From the NCBI RefSeq assembly GCF_004005845.1, contig NZ_SADE01000002.1, positions 1,240,421-1,304,420 of the forward strand: a DNA stretch of 64,000 nucleotides. The letters are read 5' to 3'. Below the pieces are notes generated by a model that made no database searches, was not told the DNA's origin, and saw nothing but the letters and a program-made list of their open reading frames with translations. Positions 26,874 through 36,191 of this stretch are shown here, in pieces (the stretch's first letter is position 1; every line of letters begins with the position of its first letter). Source of the DNA: Hwanghaeella grinnelliae (lineage in GTDB: Bacteria; Pseudomonadota; Alphaproteobacteria; UBA8366; Aestuariispiraceae). Made by a program: the position numbers and the translations under genes.

Positions 26874-27671
<798 letters not shown>

Positions 27672-27689
27672 GGAAGGGAGGGAATAGAA

Positions 27690-27974
27690 ATGCTGGACCT
27701 CACCTGGATGGCCTGGACCTGGCCGACGACCCTGTTCTTCGTGTTCATCGCGCTCTGCCTGACCGCCATGACGGTCTGGGAATTGAAATCCCCCGGCGGC
27801 GGCCCGCGCCGCGGCATCCTCACGCTGGAAACAACACGCGGCGACCGGTTGTTCATCTCCCTCCTGGGCAGCGCCTTCATCCACCTAGCCTGGCTCGGCC
27901 TCATCGGCGACCCGCTCTGGGCTGCGACGATCATCTCCGTCGTCTATGCGGGGGCGGTGTTTCGGTGGGTGTGA
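27690..27974 (+). CDS. glpU: GlpU, DUF2160 family small membrane protein, 94 aa
   Basis: Small protein with three hydrophobic segments (about residues 8-28, 46-65, 72-92) and the conserved PGGGPRRGIL-LETTRGDRLFISL loop. It belongs to DUF2160, found almost only in glycerol ABC transporter operons, where it is named GlpU and is thought to help the transport complex. The ribosome binding site is GGGAGGGAA. It is the last gene of the operon. A second copy of its last 28 codons lies at 29995-30081, fused to a fragment of sthA. Confidence 0.88.
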   Translation: MLDLTWMAWTWPTTLFFVFIALCLTAMTVWELKSPGGGPRRGILTLETTRGDRLFISLLGSAFIHLAWLGLIGDPLWAATIISVVYAGAVFRWV

Positions 27975-27986
27975 AGTCGGGGACCC

Positions 27987-28298
27987 TTACTCCTGACCTG
28001 CAAGAATAGTCTCCCAGTTTCTGCCGCCGTAGAACAGACGCAGGATCACTACGCGTTCTTCCTCGACAGTAAAGGCAATGGAAACGCGCTTCTCAAAACC
28101 AACGATCCGTAAGCCTGGGCGAATGTCGTTTCTTGCTCGGCCGCGTTCACTGGCGTTTCGGAAGCTTTGGCAATAGGCTTCAAGCCGGTCGATGTAGCCT
28201 AAGGCGACGCTTGTCCCAGCCACTTCAGCTAACCGATCATAGAGACGAAGCAGATCATCCCGTGCCTCTGGCGAAATGACGACATTCCGTGTTTTCAC
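27987..28298 (-). CDS. parE: ParE/RelE-family toxin, 103 aa
   Basis: Type II toxin of the ParE/RelE superfamily. The N-terminal helix pair contains VISPEARDDLLRLYDRLAEVAG, and the strands RPGLRIVGFEKRVSIAFTV and VVILRLFYGGRNWETIL follow the family pattern, ending in the typical 'ILR-FYGGR-WE' motif. ParE members poison DNA gyrase, whereas RelE members cleave mRNA on the ribosome; the RelE catalytic residues are not evident. Its start overlaps the parD stop by four bases, the usual antitoxin-first order. It lies 12 bases after glpU on the opposite strand. Confidence 0.85.
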   Translation of the reverse strand: MKTRNVVISPEARDDLLRLYDRLAEVAGTSVALGYIDRLEAYCQSFRNASERGRARNDIRPGLRIVGFEKRVSIAFTVEEERVVILRLFYGGRNWETILAGQE

Positions 28299-28576
28299 AC
28301 CGCCTTGTCCGCACGCTTCGCATGACGCTTGCGAACCTCTGCGAAGGCATCCGCCGTCGGAATTGCCCGAGAGGGATCCTCGTGCATGGCGTCATAAACC
28401 GGCGCGACCTCTTCGCGCAGCCATCTCTCGACGGCAGCGTCCCGTTCCTGCAAGGCGCGCAACCCGGCGCGTACAACCTCACTGGCGGATGCATAAGCAC
28501 CGGAGGATACCAACTCATCGACGAAATCCGCATGCTCTGCGGGCAGGCTGATTGTGCGTTTCTGAATTCTGGACAT
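28295..28576 (-). CDS. parD: ParD-family antitoxin, 93 aa
   Basis: Ribbon-helix-helix antitoxin of the ParD/CC2985 type. The DNA-binding N-terminus is IQKRTISLPAEHADFVDELV with SGAYASASEVVRAGLRAL behind it, and an acidic, extended C-terminus wraps the toxin. The start ATG at 28576 has AAGGAG nine bases upstream. A perfect inverted repeat (28613-28629) lies in its promoter and is probably the operator for autoregulation by the ParD-ParE complex. The pair is the first cargo after glpU in the accessory region. Confidence 0.86.
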   Translation of the reverse strand: MSRIQKRTISLPAEHADFVDELVSSGAYASASEVVRAGLRALQERDAAVERWLREEVAPVYDAMHEDPSRAIPTADAFAEVRKRHAKRADKAV

Positions 28577-28612
28577 GTTCCAAATCTCCTTGCGAGAGCA
28601 GAATAGCACGAG

Positions 28613-28650
28613 GTATGAATAAATCATACTGCGATTTGTGCGGCGACCAA
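28613..28650 (-). promoter_or_regulatory. parDE promoter and operator
   Basis: A perfect inverted repeat GTATGA-5-TCATAC occupies 28613-28629. On the minus strand -35 TTGGTC (28650-28645) and -10 TATGAT (28628-28623) are 16 bp apart, and the -10 overlaps one half-site. This matches autoregulation by a ribbon-helix-helix antitoxin. Confidence 0.5.
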
Positions 28651-28697
28651 TCAAGACGACGGCTGCTACCAAAGCCAATTTGGGACAATGCTTTGCA

Positions 28698-29201
28698 ATG
28701 AGACTGAACACAAAAATGAGAGATCTGCTGCACGGCGTTCAACCGGCAAACTTAGTCATTTCCCCTTCTCTCCAATTGCTTCTGGACGAAGGATTTCTTT
28801 GGCGGGGTGGTGCCTGTTTGTTAGCGCATTTTGCAGATGGTCAAAGGAACTTTCGCCCGAACGACTACCAAGATTTAACAGGCTACGAATGTGCCGTGAA
28901 CTCGCTGCATATTGAGGACTATGCGACAACAGACGTTGTTGCCCAAACTTATATGTTTGTTGAGCAACTGGTGGGCATGTGGAACCGGACACATACAGAT
29001 GAAAAGGCCAGAGTGATTGTCACAAGTGACGAAGGAGATGTCGTGGTGAAAATGCATACCATCAGAATTGGGGAAGAGTACCTTGCTGCCGACTTGGAAG
29101 GTTACTTGGATGCCGTGTTGGAAGTGGACACGACTGACGAACTGGAAAATGAAGACAGCTTGTTAGACTTCGCCCGCAGCATGAATACGAAGAAAATATA
29201 A
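28698..29201 (+). CDS. Protein of unknown function, 167 aa, lower GC than surroundings
   Basis: A clean frame with clearly more A/T in third positions than the glp genes, which suggests foreign origin. The protein is acidic and soluble, with no membrane segment or signal peptide. It carries hydrophobic-core stretches such as GYECAVNSLHIEDYATTDVV and a very acidic C-terminal part (LEVDTTDELENEDSLLDFA). I know no family for it. The start is unsure: ATG at 28698 or 28716, neither with a strong ribosome binding site. It is divergent from parDE and convergent with the next gene. An immunity or antitoxin-like role would fit the setting but is not shown. Confidence 0.5.
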   Translation: MRLNTKMRDLLHGVQPANLVISPSLQLLLDEGFLWRGGACLLAHFADGQRNFRPNDYQDLTGYECAVNSLHIEDYATTDVVAQTYMFVEQLVGMWNRTHTDEKARVIVTSDEGDVVVKMHTIRIGEEYLAADLEGYLDAVLEVDTTDELENEDSLLDFARSMNTKKI

Positions 29202-29325
29202 TGACAAGTGTCGCGACGGCGATACCTGTAACACGGCGTTCTCTATCCTCGGCTTCGGTTCTGGGTTCCGTTTTTGCTTCGCCTTATTAATGCACTGTCA
29301 CCGGATTATTAGACAGACGACTTGT

Positions 29326-29838
29326 CTAGATTTGGGTCAGCCGGAGAAAGGCGTCCTCTTTCCATTCGGTTTCTATGAGATTGACGTCCAGCCCGTTCGT
29401 AATAGAGAGAAAATGCCCCGCGTCGGTGAAGGCTACTCCCCCTAAAGCCCACCAATCATAGTCATTGAGGGTGTGCTGCAGTTCGACGCACCACACATTT
29501 TCGATTTCGAAGTCTTCGTAAACAGCAAATTTCCGAAGCTCGAAGCGTTCGTCTCCATACCAACTCACGCGGTCGTCTAATTTCACAGTGTCGGTGGTAA
29601 CCGAAAATTCCTCGAGTTTTTGGGCGCAAAGTTCGATTTGGCATGCGTCGGTGACAACAATCACTGGAGCATCCAGCCAATACTCGCCGTATTCCAGGCT
29701 CCAAACACACCAAACATCGAGAATTTTTTGACCTGACAAAGAACGCAGAAATGATCCGTTCCTGGATACGAAATCATCAACGTTATCCAGGAACTGCGGT
29801 TTGTAGTTCCTCAGGCCCCGTTCGTAGTCCTCTTCCAT
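29326..29838 (-). CDS. Protein of unknown function, 170 aa, lower GC than surroundings
   Basis: A soluble acidic protein rich in Trp and Tyr (for example SLEYGEYWLDAPVIVV and TLNDYDWWALGGVAF), without membrane segments. The base composition is again lower in GC than the flanks. Small, acidic, tryptophan-rich orphan proteins of this size are common among immunity proteins of polymorphic toxin systems, but no toxin gene is present, so this is only a thought. The ATG at 29838 has a weak ribosome binding site. It ends the first cargo segment; the sthA-like fragment starts 33 bases beyond its start codon. Confidence 0.5.
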   Translation of the reverse strand: MEEDYERGLRNYKPQFLDNVDDFVSRNGSFLRSLSGQKILDVWCVWSLEYGEYWLDAPVIVVTDACQIELCAQKLEEFSVTTDTVKLDDRVSWYGDERFELRKFAVYEDFEIENVWCVELQHTLNDYDWWALGGVAFTDAGHFLSITNGLDVNLIETEWKEDAFLRLTQI

Positions 29839-29870
29839 CTCGCGAGCCTATTGCTTTAGCCCATAGTTGC

Positions 29871-30000
29871 CTACGCCTTTTTTGGCATCCTGCTCCACGC
29901 ATCCAGCGCCGCGATTTTGTAGGCTTCGGCGAGGGTCGGGTAGTTGAAAGTGTTCCCGACGAAATATTCCAGCGTGCCATTCAGGTTCAGGACCGCCTGG
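29871..30000 (-). pseudogene. Fragment: duplicated 3' end of sthA
   Basis: This stretch aligns without gaps to 33001-33130, the last 43 codons of sthA, including a stop codon at the same place. By hand I count 114 of 130 identical bases. The reading frame is intact (…TFNYPTLAEAYKIAALDAW then SRMPKKA and stop), and 11 of the 16 differences fall in third codon positions. The copy therefore diverged while still part of a working gene. It ends abruptly at the sequence GCCTGG, where the glpU-like fragment takes over. Confidence 0.85.
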
Positions 30001-30081
30001 CTCGGCCTCATCGGCGACCCGCTCTGGGTGGCGACGATTATCTCCGTCGTCTATGCGGGGGCGGTGTTTCGGTGGGTGTGA
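29995..30081 (+). pseudogene. Fragment: duplicated 3' end of glpU
   Basis: This stretch repeats the glpU 3' end (about 27888-27974) up to and including the stop codon, with three base differences by hand count after the shared GCCTGG. It has no start and is fused to the sthA-like fragment, overlapping it by the six-base GCCTGG. Beyond the stop codon the sequence differs from that behind glpU. Confidence 0.85.
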
Positions 30082-30091
30082 GGGGCAGACC

Positions 30092-31396
30092 TCATTGTGG
30101 GACGCGTAGATCGTCAAAAAAGGCAACGACACGATCGGCAGCGACGCGCCACCTGGTAATCTGTTCTAGAGGAAGGAAGAAGGAATACGCCATATGGTCT
30201 TCTTCCACGCGGATCTGGCAAAGCCGGTCCTCCCAGGCGCCGCGTAAGCAATTCAAAACGACACGTCGCCCTGAAACCGGGTCAATCCCGGCGACAACGA
30301 CGCCTTGGCCGCTTTTCAGAACATCGATGTCCATTGCCGATACTTCCTGGACTCTATCAAGCGATAGCGCGTCATCGGGAATGCGGGCGGGGCGGACGTT
30401 GTATCGAATTTCCAAAAGGTCGTCGAAGAACCGGGCGCGGTCACGGGTCCCTATGAGCATGTCGCTGCGCACGGCTAGAGAATTGGGGGTGACGATTGGC
30501 AAAAACTCGGGCGGTACAGAGTATAGATGCGGTCCGACGGCGACGCGCTGAATGTCGATTATCTCTGTTCTCAACGCATCGGCAAAGTCCGTGCGTGGGA
30601 AGCAACTCCCGATATTGCCGTGCCGGCCGTTTCGGTAGAATTCTTGCTTGCGAATAGACCAGTTGCCGACGATCCGGACCATGTCGTCATCGCGCACCAT
30701 CAATGTCAAATGGGGAGACCGGTACCCCTTTTTCAAAGAGAAGAAACCGAGTTGGGCGATTGAGGACAGGGCCTTTTCCCTATGGTTGGTGGCAAGACAC
30801 CAGGGCTGGCCGTCGGCGATCTCGACCGCTTGCGTGAGTATTCGTGATGGTTGCTCCTTCCCGACCAGCGCAACGATGGACAAACACATGCAGGCAGTGG
30901 CGCCGATAACCGAGAATCGAAAGCGCCGGATAGCGGCAAATCCGGCCGCTGATAGACAACCGGCCAACACAATGCCGAAATCGAGCGGTCGACCCAATGC
31001 ACTGCCACCAAGTATGTTGGCTAGAAGGATGGCGAGCGTAAGGCCCACAACAGCCCCGGTGGCCACAAGAATTCCGAAGTCGATTGCGGCGCGCCAGCAG
31101 GTTTCAGGACCCTTGATCGATGCAGATGTGAGCCGTCCCCTCGCCGTTGCAACGATCAACCGTAGCGCTAATGCAGCCAGCACTATGATGCATAAGAGCA
31201 CCAAAATGGCATTGCCGACAAAATAACCGAAATTTTGGTCCGACCAACGCACTGGGCCAAAGAGCAGCGATGCGGCGACAAACGCAATCACGGACAAGAC
31301 CGCAGCACGCCACATCAGGAAGAGCTGCATGAGGGGGGAAATCAGGCCCAATACCAGAGCGGATATCGTGCAAGCATCTGCCAACTCTTGGGCCAT
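30092..31396 (-). CDS. Membrane protein of unknown function, 434 aa
   Basis: The N-terminal half has about six hydrophobic segments (about residues 10-28, 30-46, 57-83, 104-128, 140-158, 163-180). The C-terminal half (about 185-434) is soluble and, by topology, could be periplasmic. It contains strand-like stretches such as HLTLMVRDDDMVRIVGNWSI and two or more cysteines. I recognise no family. Codon use is like that of the flanking core genes. Its stop lies ten bases past the glpU-like fragment, at the start of the second cargo segment. The next gene at 31547 is divergent. Confidence 0.6.
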   Translation of the reverse strand: MAQELADACTISALVLGLISPLMQLFLMWRAAVLSVIAFVAASLLFGPVRWSDQNFGYFVGNAILVLLCIIVLAALALRLIVATARGRLTSASIKGPETCWRAAIDFGILVATGAVVGLTLAILLANILGGSALGRPLDFGIVLAGCLSAAGFAAIRRFRFSVIGATACMCLSIVALVGKEQPSRILTQAVEIADGQPWCLATNHREKALSSIAQLGFFSLKKGYRSPHLTLMVRDDDMVRIVGNWSIRKQEFYRNGRHGNIGSCFPRTDFADALRTEIIDIQRVAVGPHLYSVPPEFLPIVTPNSLAVRSDMLIGTRDRARFFDDLLEIRYNVRPARIPDDALSLDRVQEVSAMDIDVLKSGQGVVVAGIDPVSGRRVVLNCLRGAWEDRLCQIRVEEDHMAYSFFLPLEQITRWRVAADRVVAFFDDLRVPQ

Positions 31397-31546
31397 CGTA
31401 AGCGGTCTTTGATTGATATGGGCGTGAACACGGAAAGATGGTAGATTTTCTAGGGCAACAATGTGTCACAATTAGGGCTGGTTCCACACCTTTGGCGCGT
31501 GTCGGTTCGACGGTGCTTCACTGAGCACGTGAAAGGGTTGATCGCT

Positions 31547-31912
31547 ATGTTTGGTAAAATCGGAAATGCAGTCTTCAAAGGCGCGGTCTTTGCCTGTATC
31601 GCCTATGTCGCCGTCGTTCTTTCCAGCATTCCTGCTTCCCTGCTGCTTCCGTCGTTCGAAGAAGTCACAACCCAGCGCGCCACGAGTTGTTATTGGACAA
31701 ATGCCATGCTTGTCTTTGTCGAATGCGGAAGCGCTGTGGAGGCCGGGGTGTGGAAGAGTGCCTATTACAACGCCTGGACGATGGCCATCTACAGCCCCTT
31801 CATCGCCATGAGCTCGATCAAGGCGTTCGTTCAGGTGCTGCTGGCCTATGCGCCTGCCGTGTTTCTGCTCTATGTGCTCATCCGCATCATCAAACGGACG
31901 TGGTCGCGGTGA
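31547..31912 (+). CDS. Small membrane protein of unknown function, 121 aa
   Basis: Two clear hydrophobic segments, KGAVFACIAYVAVVLSSIPA near residues 9-30 and a C-terminal one near 92-115. A third, weaker stretch between them includes AYYNAWTMAIYSPFIAMS. Two cysteines (TSCYW and FVECGS) sit in the loop. I start at ATG 31547, which has a GAAAGGG sequence upstream; the frame is open 28 codons earlier but that part lacks a ribosome binding site. No family is recognised. It is convergent with the GST gene. Confidence 0.5.
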   Translation: MFGKIGNAVFKGAVFACIAYVAVVLSSIPASLLLPSFEEVTTQRATSCYWTNAMLVFVECGSAVEAGVWKSAYYNAWTMAIYSPFIAMSSIKAFVQVLLAYAPAVFLLYVLIRIIKRTWSR

Positions 31913-31972
31913 GGATCTGGCATCCTGCCGGTGATACGAACGCCGGCCGGGTGGCGGGATTGGGACGTTCCT

Positions 31973-32569
31973 TCAAGGGACGCCATTGCGGCAATGCTGC
32001 GAAAAACCGGGACGGGAAGACAGGCGATCCATCCAGGCTGCGATAGCCGGCAGGGCGGGGCGGTCCATCGGGGTCCGCTCCCAGCGGTTGGTGGAGAGCG
32101 CGAGCACGATATCGGCGAGGGTGAAATCGCCACCGGCGGCATAGGCGCCGGTGGAACTGAGCCGGTCCTCCAGAATGCGCATCTGCTTGGTCCAGTCGCG
32201 GATGCTGGCGTCCTGCACGGCGGGGTCGGCGAAGTCGGGATGGTTGCGGACGCGGCCCATGAAGACGCCGCGCCAGGCGGTGTTCAGGTCGCTCGCCTGC
32301 CAGTCCATCCAGCTTTCAACCTGGGCGCGGGCGGCGGGTGTTTCGGGCAGCAGGTCGTGCCGACCTTCGCGCGCGGCGAGATAGCGGCAGATCGTGTTCG
32401 ATTCGGTCAAGACAAGGCCGCCGTCGACCAGCACCGGAACCAGTCCTTTGGGATTGAGCGCGCGGATGTCCGTGTCCGTCTCGTCATGCGCGGGGGTAAG
32501 CCCCAGTTCCGCGCAGGTCCACAAGACCTTGCGGACATTGATCGAAGACGACCGGCCCAGGAGTTTCAT
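31973..32569 (-). CDS. Glutathione S-transferase family protein, 198 aa
   Basis: An N-terminal thioredoxin-like domain (about residues 1-78) holds the glutathione site: GRSSSINVRKV with a candidate catalytic serine, the cis-Pro segment GLVPVLVDGG, and the ES motif LTESNTICRYLA. The helical C-terminal domain (about 88-198) contains FTLADIVLALSTNRW, the N-capping-box region of the GST fold. Length is normal. The reaction and substrate cannot be told; such single GSTs are often of broad detoxifying function. It lies in the second cargo segment between glpU and sthA. Confidence 0.9.
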   Translation of the reverse strand: MKLLGRSSSINVRKVLWTCAELGLTPAHDETDTDIRALNPKGLVPVLVDGGLVLTESNTICRYLAAREGRHDLLPETPAARAQVESWMDWQASDLNTAWRGVFMGRVRNHPDFADPAVQDASIRDWTKQMRILEDRLSSTGAYAAGGDFTLADIVLALSTNRWERTPMDRPALPAIAAWMDRLSSRPGFSQHCRNGVP

Positions 32570-32609
32570 GGTGGAGTGACCCTTGGTTTTATGGCGACGC
32601 GGTGCGTCC

Positions 32610-32987
32610 CTAGTTCTTGGCCGGTGTACTGGGGTCGTAGCGCCGGCTGAGCCGTTTCAAAATCATCCGGTCCACGAAATAGGCAGCGTAGCAGAGAACA
32701 ATGAAAATCGGGCCGACCAGATACCTGTCCGGGTCGCTGAGGAACAATGTCGAAAGAGAATAGTACAACACCGGTACAGCGAACGGTGCCGAAAAAAGCA
32801 AAACAAGCCGAAGCGGCGACACGCCCCATTTCCACGCGAGTTTGACGGAGCTGTAGACCAGCCATGCAAAGATGATCGGTAGAAGGACTGACATAATAGC
32901 GCTGAAAAAAGACTTCGCTCCATCATCGTCAGCGAGAGCTGGAAAGGGCGCGACCAGCATGGCGGCCAGAAAAGCGAACTGAAGCAT
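32610..32987 (-). CDS. Small membrane protein with signal peptide-like start, 125 aa
   Basis: The N-terminus MLQFAFLAAMLVAPFPALADD looks like a signal peptide with cleavage after ALA. Three further hydrophobic segments follow (about residues 30-48, 58-76, 85-105) and a basic C-terminus (MILKRLSRRYDP). No family recognised. The start at 32987 is 14 bases beyond the sthA stop codon on the same strand, so it may be translated from the sthA message. There is no strong ribosome binding site. Confidence 0.5.
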   Translation of the reverse strand: MLQFAFLAAMLVAPFPALADDDGAKSFFSAIMSVLLPIIFAWLVYSSVKLAWKWGVSPLRLVLLFSAPFAVPVLYYSLSTLFLSDPDRYLVGPIFIVLCYAAYFVDRMILKRLSRRYDPSTPAKN

Positions 32988-33000
32988 TGCGGACACGCGG

Positions 33001-34398
33001 CTATCCCTTCCTCGGCATCCTATTCCACGCATCCAACGCGGCGATTTTGTAGGCTTCGGCCAGGGTCGGGTAGTTGAAGGTGTTTTCCACGAAGTATTCC
33101 AGCGTGCCTTTCAGGTTCAGGACCGCCTGGCCGATATGGATCAGCTCGGTCGCGCCTTCGCCGACGATATGGACGCCCAGCAGGCGGTGGGTCTTGATGG
33201 AGAAGATCATTTTCATCATGCCGCTGTCCAAGCCCATGATATGGCCGCGGGAGGTTTCCCGGAACCGGGCGATGCCGCATTCATAGGGTATGCCGCGTTC
33301 TTCGACTTCCTCCTCGGTCATGCCGCAGGTGGAAATCTCCGGCACGGCGTAAATGCCATAGGGGAAATATTCCGGCGGCTTCTGCGCTTTCTCCCCCAGC
33401 GCGTGGCAGGCGGCGATGCGCCCCTGTTCCATCGAGGTGGAGGCGAGGCTGGGAAAGCCGATGACGTCGCCGGCGGCATAGACATGGGGGACCTCGGTCT
33501 GGAAAGTCGCCGGGTTGACCTTGATGCGCCCGCGATGGTCGACCGTCAGGCCGACGGCGTCCAGGTTAAGACTGTCGGTCGCGCCCATCCTGCCCGCCGC
33601 GAACAGGACCATGTCGGACTTGCACACCCGGCCGCCTTCCAGATGGGTGATGCATTGGCCGTCTTCCCGCGTCACTTTCACCACGGCCTTGCCCATGCGG
33701 AGTGTGACGCCGCGGTCGCGCAGTTGGTGGGTGAAATCCTCGATCAATTCCCGGTCGATGAAATCCAGCATCGTATCCCGCGGTTCGATCAGGGTGGCCG
33801 GGACGTCGAGCGCGGAGAAGATCGTCGCGTATTCGACGCCGATGACGCCGGCGCCGATCACCACGATCGACCGGGGAATTCGGTTCACGTCCAACACGTC
33901 GTCGCTGTCGAGCACGTTTTCACCGTCGAAGGGCACCCAGTCCGGTCGGAACGGGTTGGTGCCGACGCAGAGCAGGAAGGCCTTGGCGCTGACCAGATGC
34001 CGCTCGCCGTCCTCGCCGGTCACTTCCACGGTGTGGGGGTCGGTGAAGCGGGCCGCGCCCATGATTGTATCCACGTGGTTGCGGGCGAATTGATGCTCCA
34101 GAACCTCGACTTCATGGTCCAGTGTCTTCAGCAGCCGGTGGCGCAGATCGTCGGAGGAAATGTCCTGCTTCACCCGATAGGCCCGGCCATAGAAGCCGCG
34201 CTCGCGCCAGCCCGACAGGTTCAGCACCGTCTCCCGCAAGGTCTTGGACGGGATGGTGCCGGTATGGACCGAAACGCCGCCCACGCGCCGGCCTTTTTCC
34301 ACAACCAGCGCGTTTCGGCCGAACTTGGCCGCCTGAATGGCCGCGCGCCGCCCGGCCGGGCCGCTGCCCACCACGATCAAATCATATTCGGCTTGCAT
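33001..34398 (-). CDS. sthA: Soluble (Si-specific) NAD(P)+ transhydrogenase, 465 aa
   Basis: Flavoprotein of the pyridine nucleotide-disulfide family that equilibrates NADH and NADPH in the cytoplasm. The FAD site is DLIVVGSGPAGRRAAIQAAK, the NAD(P) site IVVIGAGVIGVEYATIFSAL, and the second FAD segment VYAAGDVIGFPSLASTSMEQG. Where dihydrolipoamide dehydrogenases have the redox-active Cys pair, it reads GGVSVHTGTIPSKTLRE. Both cysteines are missing, as expected for transhydrogenase-like members. Length is standard. The ATG at 34398 follows AGGGGAAAAG. The last 43 codons exist a second time, at 29871-30000. Confidence 0.9.
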   Translation of the reverse strand: MQAEYDLIVVGSGPAGRRAAIQAAKFGRNALVVEKGRRVGGVSVHTGTIPSKTLRETVLNLSGWRERGFYGRAYRVKQDISSDDLRHRLLKTLDHEVEVLEHQFARNHVDTIMGAARFTDPHTVEVTGEDGERHLVSAKAFLLCVGTNPFRPDWVPFDGENVLDSDDVLDVNRIPRSIVVIGAGVIGVEYATIFSALDVPATLIEPRDTMLDFIDRELIEDFTHQLRDRGVTLRMGKAVVKVTREDGQCITHLEGGRVCKSDMVLFAAGRMGATDSLNLDAVGLTVDHRGRIKVNPATFQTEVPHVYAAGDVIGFPSLASTSMEQGRIAACHALGEKAQKPPEYFPYGIYAVPEISTCGMTEEEVEERGIPYECGIARFRETSRGHIMGLDSGMMKMIFSIKTHRLLGVHIVGEGATELIHIGQAVLNLKGTLEYFVENTFNYPTLAEAYKIAALDAWNRMPRKG

Positions 34399-34769
34399 CT
34401 TTTCCCCTGCTTTCGTGCCGGCCGTGTCATTCCCCAGATAGGCATATCGCGATGCATATCATTCCGCACTTCCGCCTGTATATCCGACCAGACTAACCGG
34501 AAGCTTGCCAAATTGCGCCGGTTTTATTCCAGCGGCGATCCAACCCGTGCCGGTTTTACCAGACGCGGCCGATATAGGGCGATTATACTATGACTATACT
34601 GCGACAATACTGCTATGGGCCCGCTTAAGTGCAGTTGACACAAGGCGCTGTCATGTCATGCTGGTATTCGAATTCGGGCGGCGAAACGATCCGGATCGTC
34701 ATTGCGGGTTTACAGTAACAACAAATCACGCAACGGGTGCGGCGGAAGACCGCGTCCGGGTTGAGGGGC
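34399..34769. other. Divergent control region between sthA and the Anbu operon
   Basis: About 370 bases without a gene. For sthA a perfect TATAAT lies on the minus strand at 34587-34582, in a short AT-rich stretch with near repeats of the ACTATACTG type. For the plus-strand operon a TTGACA at 34635-34640 is a possible -35, but no good -10 follows. Nothing else is recognised. Confidence 0.35.
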
Positions 34770-36191
34770 ATGGTACTCGCGAAAGCTTTCGATGAAATGA
34801 CGCTTGCAGGCGGCGCTTGCCGCGACGCCTACAAGGGGCTTTCCCAATGGCTTCAATGGACGCCGACCGATTTCCTTCGGATGAAGCGCCAGGAAGCCGA
34901 TGTTTTATTCCGGCGACTGGGGATTACCTTTGCCGTCTATGGCGAAGGGGGCGATCCGGAACGGCTGATTCCGTTCGACATTATTCCGCGCGTCCTGTCT
35001 GCGCCGGAATGGCAGCGGATGGAAGACGGCCTGCGTCAGCGGGTCAAAGCGCTGAACATGTTCCTGAACGACGTTTATCACGACCAGGAAATTCTGAAGG
35101 CCGGGATCATCCCCGAAAAGCTGGTCCTGAATAACTCCTCCTACCTGCCGGAAATGCAGGGGGTGGACGTTCCGGGCAATGTCTACAGCCATATCGCCGG
35201 GATCGACATGGTCCGGGTCGGTGAGGACGATTTTTACGTTCTGGAAGACAATTGCCGCACGCCGTCTGGTGTTTCCTACATGCTGGAAAACCGGGAAGTG
35301 ATGATGCGCCTGTTCCCCGCCCTATTCGCGGAACACCGGATCGCGCCGGTCGACAGCTATGGCGATGCGCTTCTGGATACGCTGAAGGAATGCGCGCCGC
35401 CGAAAACGACGGGGGACCCGACCGTCGTGGTCCTGACGCCGGGCATCTATAACAGCGCCTATTTCGAGCATTCCTTCCTGGCCGACCAAATGGGTGTGGA
35501 ACTGGTCGAGGGGCCGGACCTGTTCGTCGATGACGGCAAGGTGTTCATGCGCACCACCCAAGGGCCGCAGAAGGTCGACGTCATCTATCGGCGGATCGAC
35601 GACACATTCCTGGATCCGCTGACCTTCGACCCGAATTCCGTGCTGGGCGTGCCGGGCATCATGAACGCCTACCGGTCCGGCCAGGTGACGCTGGCGAATG
35701 CGGTCGGGGCGGGGATCGCCGACGACAAGGCGATCTATACCTATGTGCCCGACATGATAAAATTCTATCTGGGCGAAGAACCGATTCTGAAAAACGTCCC
35801 GACCTATAAATGCGGGGAAGCGGACGACCTGGCCTATGTTCTCGACAATCTGGCGGAGCTGGTGGTCAAGGAAGTCCACGGGTCCGGCGGTTACGGCATG
35901 CTTGTCGGCCCGGCGGCCAGCAAGCAGGAGCGCGAGGACTATGCCGAACGCCTGAAGGCCGCGCCGGACGAGTTCATCGCCCAGCCGACATTGGCGTTGA
36001 GTACCTGCCCGACCTTCGTGGAATCCGGCGTCGCACCCCGCCATGTGGACTTTCGGCCCTTCGTGCTGTCCGGCAAGGATATCCGGATGGTGAAGGGCGG
36101 TTTGACCCGGGTCGCCTTGCGCGACGGTTCGCTCGTGGTGAATTCAAGCCAGGGCGGCGGGACCAAGGACACTTGGGTCTTGGAAGAATAA
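34770..36191 (+). CDS. Circularly permuted ATP-grasp protein of the Anbu operon, 473 aa
   Basis: Matches the COG2308 type of circularly permuted ATP-grasp proteins. Conserved pieces are FDEMTLAGGACRDAYKGLSQWL at the start, RVKALNMFLNDVYHDQEIL, and the ATP-grasp region DDFYVLEDNCRTPSGVSYMLENR. HGSGGYGMLVGP and FVLSGKDIRMVKGGLTRVAL come later. It is expected to ligate an amino group to a carboxylate with ATP, giving a peptide or amide bond; the substrate is not known. It is the first gene of four that always travel together: ATP-grasp, alpha-E, transglutaminase, Anbu. The start at ATG 34770 is preceded by GAGGGG; an in-frame GTG at 34737 is less likely. Confidence 0.92.
   Translation: MVLAKAFDEMTLAGGACRDAYKGLSQWLQWTPTDFLRMKRQEADVLFRRLGITFAVYGEGGDPERLIPFDIIPRVLSAPEWQRMEDGLRQRVKALNMFLNDVYHDQEILKAGIIPEKLVLNNSSYLPEMQGVDVPGNVYSHIAGIDMVRVGEDDFYVLEDNCRTPSGVSYMLENREVMMRLFPALFAEHRIAPVDSYGDALLDTLKECAPPKTTGDPTVVVLTPGIYNSAYFEHSFLADQMGVELVEGPDLFVDDGKVFMRTTQGPQKVDVIYRRIDDTFLDPLTFDPNSVLGVPGIMNAYRSGQVTLANAVGAGIADDKAIYTYVPDMIKFYLGEEPILKNVPTYKCGEADDLAYVLDNLAELVVKEVHGSGGYGMLVGPAASKQEREDYAERLKAAPDEFIAQPTLALSTCPTFVESGVAPRHVDFRPFVLSGKDIRMVKGGLTRVALRDGSLVVNSSQGGGTKDTWVLEE

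What the first reader, a model, noticed from the sequence alone, without database searches (positions are those of the whole stretch)
27888..33130. Two different cargo cassettes of one convergent-gene hotspot joined in tandem through a hybrid sthA'/glpU' junction
At 29871-30081 the 3' end of sthA (minus strand, 130 bp) is fused directly to the 3' end of glpU (plus strand, about 85 bp); both parts include their stop codons. Both originals flank the region in the same orientation (glpU ends at 27974, sthA stop at 33001). The order is therefore glpU-end / cargo 1 (parDE and two low-GC orphans) / sthA-end' / glpU-end' / cargo 2 (434-aa membrane protein, 121-aa protein, GST, 125-aa protein) / sthA-end. 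The switch from sthA' to glpU' lies at GCCTGG, which both genes carry. The two cargoes look unrelated. In the sthA' copy 16 of 130 bases differ from sthA, 11 of them in third codon positions, while glpU' has about 3 differences. So sthA' diverged in a working gene of another lineage and is not a decaying recent duplicate. The simplest reading is that the glpU-sthA gap is an accessory-gene hotspot and an unequal recombination put a second allele beside the resident one.
Basis: partly seen in the sequence, partly recalled or inferred. Interest (0 to 1): 0.75.

Follow-up and report, generated by a model that had tools for sequence, protein, structure and literature searches.

The report
Two rival gene cassettes in tandem
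At one variable spot in a bacterial chromosome two different sets of extra genes, which would be expected to replace each other, sit side by side, joined through a scar made of the broken ends of the two neighbouring genes; this looks like a clear fossil of a known, rare kind of recombination and not a new kind of element.

Summary
At 29871-30081 a 131-bp copy of the sthA 3' end (88%) is fused to an 87-bp copy of the glpU 3' end (97%) at a shared GCCTGGC (7 bp). Similarity ends at the stop codon of each copy, and the two cargoes share no detectable sequence, so plain duplication plus drift fits badly. The only congener listed by the genome search has bioY between glpU and the same ATP-grasp gene, with neither sthA nor cargo there, so the variable interval is glpU to the ATP-grasp gene, not glpU-sthA. 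Best reading: two alleles of a minimal-mobile-element-like cassette site were joined additively by one microhomology join plus homologous recombination (homology-facilitated illegitimate recombination or a close variant). In 2.27 Mb of this genome (43%) the junction is the only reciprocal one among 49 repeat rows; one single gene-end scar was also seen. Strains with only one cargo could not be sought. Ordinary mechanism, unusually clean example.

The parts
27690..27974 (+). glpU, intact (94 aa, DUF2160), left edge of the variable interval
27987..28588 (-). cargo 1a: ParE toxin (27987-28298) and ParD antitoxin (28295-28588)
   Evidence: PF05016 and PF03693 above cut-off; TIGR02606 for ParD
28638..29201 (+). 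cargo 1b: orphan 187-aa ORF (alternative ATG start 28704, 165 aa)
   Evidence: no family; match in 3 of 289 class genomes, own included; 3 plasmid records of 72,556
29326..29838 (-). cargo 1c: orphan 170-aa ORF
   Evidence: no family above cut-off; 1 of 289 class genomes, the own one; 6 plasmid records, identity 27.5-32.9%
29871..30001 (-). sthA': severed copy of the sthA 3' end including stop codon
   Evidence: 88% to 33001-33131; three conserved residues changed
29995..30001 (.). join, GCCTGGC carried by both genes
   Evidence: overlap of 7 or more in 0.15% of the joins of present sthA and glpU sequence that were tried
29995..30081 (+). glpU': severed copy of the glpU 3' end including stop codon
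   Evidence: 97% to 27888-27974
30092..31396 (-). cargo 2a: 434-aa orphan, N-terminal part hydrophobic (by eye)
   Evidence: ORF; no family above cut-off; 1 of 289 class genomes, the own one; one plasmid record (Rhizobium) matching residues 260-433 at 39.7%
31547..31912 (+). cargo 2b: 121-aa orphan
   Evidence: ORF; no family (longer 149-aa form)
31973..32569 (-). cargo 2c: glutathione S-transferase (198 aa)
   Evidence: PF13409, PF13417, PF00043 above cut-off
32610..32987 (-). cargo 2d: 125-aa orphan
   Evidence: ORF; no family (140-aa form, one match below cut-off)
33001..34398 (-). sthA, intact Si-specific NAD(P)(+) transhydrogenase, 465 aa
   Evidence: NF003585 669.7 bits, cut-off 465
34737..36191 (+). 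circularly permuted ATP-grasp gene, right edge shared with the congener
   Evidence: PF14403 E 9.8e-170; L130 5960-7384 in the congener

Best explanation
The interval after glpU is a site where whole-gene cassettes are exchanged between relatives by recombination in the flanking genes, as in minimal mobile elements. Here an exchange was additive. One allele read glpU-cargo 1-sthA', another glpU'-cargo 2-sthA. One end of the incoming DNA was anchored by homology (most simply in glpU or upstream), the other end was joined illegitimately at a 7-bp sequence that lies up to 131 bp from the sthA end and 87 bp from the glpU end. The result keeps both cargoes, with both outer genes intact, and leaves a hybrid sthA'/glpU' scar, of which the sthA' part has since decayed. 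Shown: anatomy, join, absence of similarity beyond the stop codons, different content in the congener, altered sthA'. Inferred: the two parental alleles, which of them was resident, where the homologous crossover lay, whether the DNA came in linear or as a circle, and how it was delivered.
For: Anatomy and join. Similarity is high up to each stop codon and at shuffle level after it (next 300 bp: 148 and 127 of 300 shuffles score as high; first 30 nt 27% identical in both cases), and no blastn match between cargoes: the two units differed in cargo before or when they were joined. Congener: glpU-bioY-ATP-grasp; bioY was not found in the own genome (the tool warns that an empty answer without a control shows little). 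A 7-bp overlap lies within the 3-10 bp given for most HFIR joins (PMC3240628, passages) and is rare among joins of these two genes (0.15%). sthA' (16 of 131) and glpU' (3 of 87) differ in divergence (Fisher p 0.027), as two donors would allow. One other gene-end scar was seen in the 2.27 Mb scanned (DUF547 gene). A ComEC-family match is present; 10 of 14 control genomes have one too, so it only permits transformation.
Against: No genome with only cargo 1 or only cargo 2 was seen. The numbers of differences are small, so the two-donor argument is weak alone. HFIR generally deletes about as much resident DNA as it inserts (PMC3240628); here the loss would be at most about 198 bp of one glpU copy. 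In that paper's own E. coli conjugation events 3 of 4 joins had no homology and one had 1 nt. sthA' and sthA are sisters only with support 0.59 on 117 nt. Outside this genome sthA and glpU were not seen as neighbours, so the two parental alleles are inferred from this one sequence. In genus g5 the DNA after glpU is conserved between two species, so the place is not variable everywhere.
Confidence: 0.66

Rival explanations
1. The glpU-cargo-sthA segment was first tandemly duplicated in one genome at the same 7-bp microhomology; later ordinary homologous recombination with another strain replaced the cargo of one of the two units.
For: A tandem duplication between GCCTGGC in glpU and in sthA gives exactly this junction (anatomy). 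Tandem duplications with hybrid junctions are described in pneumococcus (PMC3784515, passages). Replacement limited to the intergenic part would end similarity at the stop codons, as seen.
Against: Needs two events and the survival of a duplication. The replacing crossover on the scar side would have to lie within 131 bp of sthA' or 87 bp of glpU', or reach across.
Confidence: 0.2
2. Plain tandem duplication of glpU-cargo 1-cargo 2-sthA followed by loss of different cargo halves in the two units and drift of the scar.
For: Explains the junction with one genome only; sthA' shows decay.
Against: glpU' is 97% identical up to the stop and then at shuffle level; independent losses would have to end at the stop codons. 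Third positions carry 11 of 16 differences, and four synonymous changes seem to lie on the branch of intact sthA (my polarising).
Confidence: 0.06
3. An unseen site-specific recombinase or mobile element inserts cassettes at convergent gene ends.
For: Additive order resembles cassette stacking; cargo 1 carries a toxin-antitoxin pair, which is common in mobile DNA (recalled).
Against: No integrase or transposase family among the cargo products (five of eight have no family at all); in the region searched the only direct repeats above 80% identity over 20 nt or more are the two gene-end copies and pieces of them; the other scar found uses an unrelated gene.
Confidence: 0.04
4. Assembly chimera of two strains.
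For: Only one assembly was seen, no reads.
Against: The contig has 1.36 Mb in an assembly of 7 contigs, completeness 97.85, contamination 0.02; the repeat copies differ by 12% and 3%, so they are no likely collapse point; sthA' has residues that are not expected in a working gene.
Confidence: 0.03

Closest known systems
Minimal mobile element (Saunders and Snyder 2002, seen only as a reference; definition read in passages of PMC3082526)
   Same: Different whole-gene cassettes between two conserved genes, incorporated by homologous recombination
   Different: Here two cassettes stand in tandem through an illegitimate join; strain-level exchange is inferred, and the shared flanks were seen in two genomes only
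Homology-facilitated illegitimate recombination (HFIR; PMC3240628, passages)
   Same: One homologous side, one illegitimate side with 3-10 bp microhomology in most cases
   Different: Nearly purely additive; the homologous side cannot be seen here
Displaced T6SS effector-immunity arrays of Vibrio cholerae (PMC5361080, passages)
   Same: A new module is added beside old genes, and in one case the 3' end of a displaced gene is shifted back and kept; a mechanism akin to HFIR is proposed
   Different: Effector-immunity modules; here the scar joins the 3' ends of two convergent genes and both outer genes stay whole
Transformation-made merodiploids of Streptococcus pneumoniae (PMC3784515, passages)
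   Same: Tandem arrangement with a hybrid junction, made by recombination of donor and host DNA
   Different: Those use repeats such as IS861 and duplicate the same genes; here 7 bp and two different cargoes
Insertion with long target duplication (recalled from Kobayashi and colleagues; only a search listing seen)
   Same: A long direct copy of flanking sequence borders the inserted genes (recalled)
   Different: Here two different flank copies abut each other

Membership tests
Minimal mobile element | different whole-gene cassettes between the same two conserved genes in different genomes | tested here: met
   glpU and the ATP-grasp gene flank bioY in G001 and both cargoes plus sthA in G000; two genomes only, of different species
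Minimal mobile element | incorporation by homologous recombination in the flanking genes | not testable with these tools
   needs strains of one species
Minimal mobile element | no mobility genes of its own (recalled feature) | tested here: met
   no such family; five of eight cargo products have no family, so a novel one is not excluded
HFIR product | illegitimate join with short (3-10 bp) microhomology | tested here: met
   GCCTGGC, 7 bp
HFIR product | homologous crossover at the other side of the insert | not testable with these tools
   no donor or recipient allele held
HFIR product | deletion of resident DNA of a size similar to the insert (general, not obligatory) | tested here: inconclusive
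   no resident allele to compare; from the anatomy the loss is at most about 198 bp of one glpU copy and both outer genes are intact, so the usual form is not seen; the event is called HFIR-like
Simple tandem duplication | the two units share sequence beyond the junction genes | tested here: not met
Site-specific (integrase) island | integrase gene and att sites | tested here: not met

The most novel reading that the evidence does not exclude
Convergent gene ends are a general entry point where replacement cassettes turn into additive tandem arrays: a short match inside the coding ends leaves both flanking genes whole, so selection preserves just these joins, and hybrid 3'/3' scars record past allele stacking genome-wide.
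Probability: 0.15. Interest if true: 0.6.

Novelty: new member of a known kind. Interest (0 to 1): 0.36.

Why it matters
It is a legible record of how a chromosome can keep two alternative accessory cassettes at a site where they would be expected to replace each other. Reciprocal gene-end scars of this kind can be searched for automatically and could give the rate of additive, illegitimate gains outside classical mobile elements in genera for which no transformation assay exists.

Tried and rejected
Structure of the two cargo 1 orphans: single-sequence AlphaFold models at mean pLDDT 45.7 (165-aa form) and 42.8 (170 aa), not used further. Defence-system reading of the cargoes: no PADLOC match for 8 of 8 products. 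Plasmid origin of the cargo: DNA search gave 44 plasmid records, none with 80% of the query; the 20 listed match only the GST, ParD or sthA' parts (24 not listed). A donor for sthA': 8 of 43 genomes of the order match; the best after itself is the intact sthA of the same genome (89%), then genus g5 at 80-85%. A terminator role of the scar: 10 terminator-like sites in 27600-33200 against 6.0 (sd 2.7) in shuffles, none within 29871-30081. Polarising glpU vs glpU': undecided; the relatives differ at both codons. Papers: the searches listed no title or abstract that describes a tandem of two alternative cassettes through a hybrid junction of both flanking gene ends; listings only, capped at 10 to 15 rows, and subscription papers are mostly not held.

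Rows dropped: one search returned 80 of 97 loci. One search kept sthA relatives of 64% identity or more (98 with the own gene). One search reduced them to 81 distinct relatives that hold the motif; one search used these plus the two own sequences (83). One search left out glpU relatives whose alignment had gaps or ended before residue 90. The repeat scan took direct repeats at E 1e-6 or better, starts at least 200 bp apart, in pieces of 45 kb.
Full report
What is there. The hybrid at 29871-30081 is real. Read on the + strand it is the reverse complement of the last 131 bases of sthA, then, through GCCTGGC shared by both genes, the last 87 bases of glpU. Both pieces keep their stop codons. The originals stand outside in the same orientation: glpU ends at 27974 and the sthA stop is at 33001. 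Between glpU and the scar lie a ParDE pair and two orphans; between the scar and sthA a 434-aa orphan, a 121-aa orphan, a GST and a 125-aa orphan.

Is it more than chance. I scanned 2.27 Mb of the same genome (all of contig C2, the first 913 kb of C1; 43% of the genome) for direct repeats in pieces of 45 kb. Of 49 rows (25 on C2, 24 on C1), a test of all pairs of rows finds one case in which the inner copies abut and the originals lie on opposite sides, this one. Overlaps of 7 bp or more occur at 0.15% of the joins tried between the present sthA and glpU.

The two units look like different alleles, not one duplicated unit. Similarity stops at the stop codons. The 300 bases after the glpU and glpU' stops, and after the sthA and sthA' stops, align no better than shuffled sequence (148 and 127 of 300 shuffles as good), the first 30 bases are 27% identical in both cases, and blastn finds nothing between the cargoes. 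A plain duplication followed by drift should leave shared sequence beyond the stops, above all next to glpU', which is still 97% identical.

Where the variable interval really is. The one congener that the genome search listed (G001) has, in order, the transport genes, glpU, a BioY gene and the ATP-grasp gene. No close sthA was found in that genome (best match 34%; a draft of 360 contigs, 94% complete, 7% contaminated). BioY was not found in the own genome (a search without a control of its own). So the interval that differs between the two species runs from the glpU stop to the ATP-grasp start, and sthA belongs to it. Of 14 family genomes, six have both glpU and a match of the ATP-grasp protein, and two of these six, both of this genus, have them adjacent. 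Four have both glpU and a close sthA (G000, G004, G009, G011; 72% identity or more), and only G000 has them adjacent. In none of 80 named sthA loci with up to 10 kb of flank (several shorter) did tblastn find a glpU. In genus g5 the sequence after glpU is conserved between G009 and G011, so variability at this place is not universal.

Has sthA' been a working gene. The count is right and unlikely under free drift (p 0.004). But comparison with 81 distinct relatives shows that sthA' has K->N where 77 of 81 have K (one has N), E->G where 73 have E and none G, and N->S where all 81 have N. Polarised against four genus g5 sequences, about eight differences fall on the sthA' side (three codons there change conserved residues), four, all synonymous, on the intact sthA, and four in the variable tail cannot be placed; this placing is my reading of the table. 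FastTree on 117 nt gives sthA' a branch of 0.097 and sthA one of 0.043; the two are sisters with support 0.59. A working allele of a related lineage that then lost its function and decayed fits both facts. The difference between 16 of 131 and 3 of 87 (Fisher p 0.027) suggests that the two copies need not have one age or one donor, but the numbers are small.

Mechanism. Two recombining alleles, glpU-cargo 1-sthA and glpU-cargo 2-sthA, one homologous exchange and one join at 7 bp give the arrangement in one step. That is homology-facilitated illegitimate recombination as defined in PMC3240628, where 3-10 bp of microhomology is reported for most earlier cases, while three of that paper's own four conjugation joins had none and one had 1 nt (passages). 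A circle closed at the same 7 bp and integrated by one crossover in glpU gives the same product and cannot be told apart here. A tandem duplication at the 7 bp followed by replacement of one cargo is the main rival. The genome has a ComEC-family match, as have 10 of 14 control genomes; this only allows transformation.

A second scar. At C1:121855-122043 lies a copy (86% over 190 columns) of the 3' part of the DUF547 gene C1:123651-124511, ending 20 bases short of its stop end, with a frameshift and a stop codon; a DctP-family gene (C1:122445-123497) lies between the two copies. It is a single scar, not a hybrid, and its own history was not traced, but it suggests that joins of this kind have been kept elsewhere in this genome.

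Compared with what is known. Interchangeable cassettes between conserved genes are minimal mobile elements (definition in PMC3082526, passages). Additive gain of modules with displaced remnants, attributed to a process akin to HFIR, is described for T6SS arrays (PMC5361080, passages). Hybrid junctions of tandem units are described in pneumococcal merodiploids (PMC3784515, passages). Dimorphic loci attributed to homology-assisted illegitimate recombination are described in E. coli (PMC2884548, passages). The present locus combines these; the listings did not show the combination. I file it as a clean new example of a known kind.

Limits. No strain-level genomes, no reads, one congener. The parental alleles are inferred. 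Five of eight cargo products have no known family; ParDE could help to keep cargo 1 in place, but this was not tested.

Noticed in passing
L262:7855-8043 (G000:C1:121855-122043), gene L262:9651-10511: Decayed copy (86%) of the 3' part of a DUF547 gene, with a frameshift and a stop, on the far side of a DctP-family gene: a second gene-end scar.
   Followed up: partly
L130:5003-5960 (G001:C135): In the congener a BioY gene occupies the glpU to ATP-grasp interval; no BioY was found in the window's own genome.
   Followed up: partly
G000:C1:812271-812311 and 824502-824542: A perfect 41-base direct repeat 12.2 kb apart, possibly the ends of an integrated element.
   Followed up: no
G000:C2:307080-307573 and 312066-312560: A 496-column direct repeat (87%) 5 kb apart, one copy overlapping the 5' part of a 377-aa ORF.
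   Followed up: no
window 28638-29201 and 29326-29838: Two orphans of lower G+C; distant matches (25-33%) on 9 plasmid records (Streptomyces, Niallia, Mycobacterium, Salmonella), and in 289 genomes of the class matches in two others for the first and none for the second.
   Followed up: partly
window 32610-33032: The longest frame of the 125-aa cargo gene starts inside the sthA 3' end (140 aa); the true start is unsettled.
   Followed up: no
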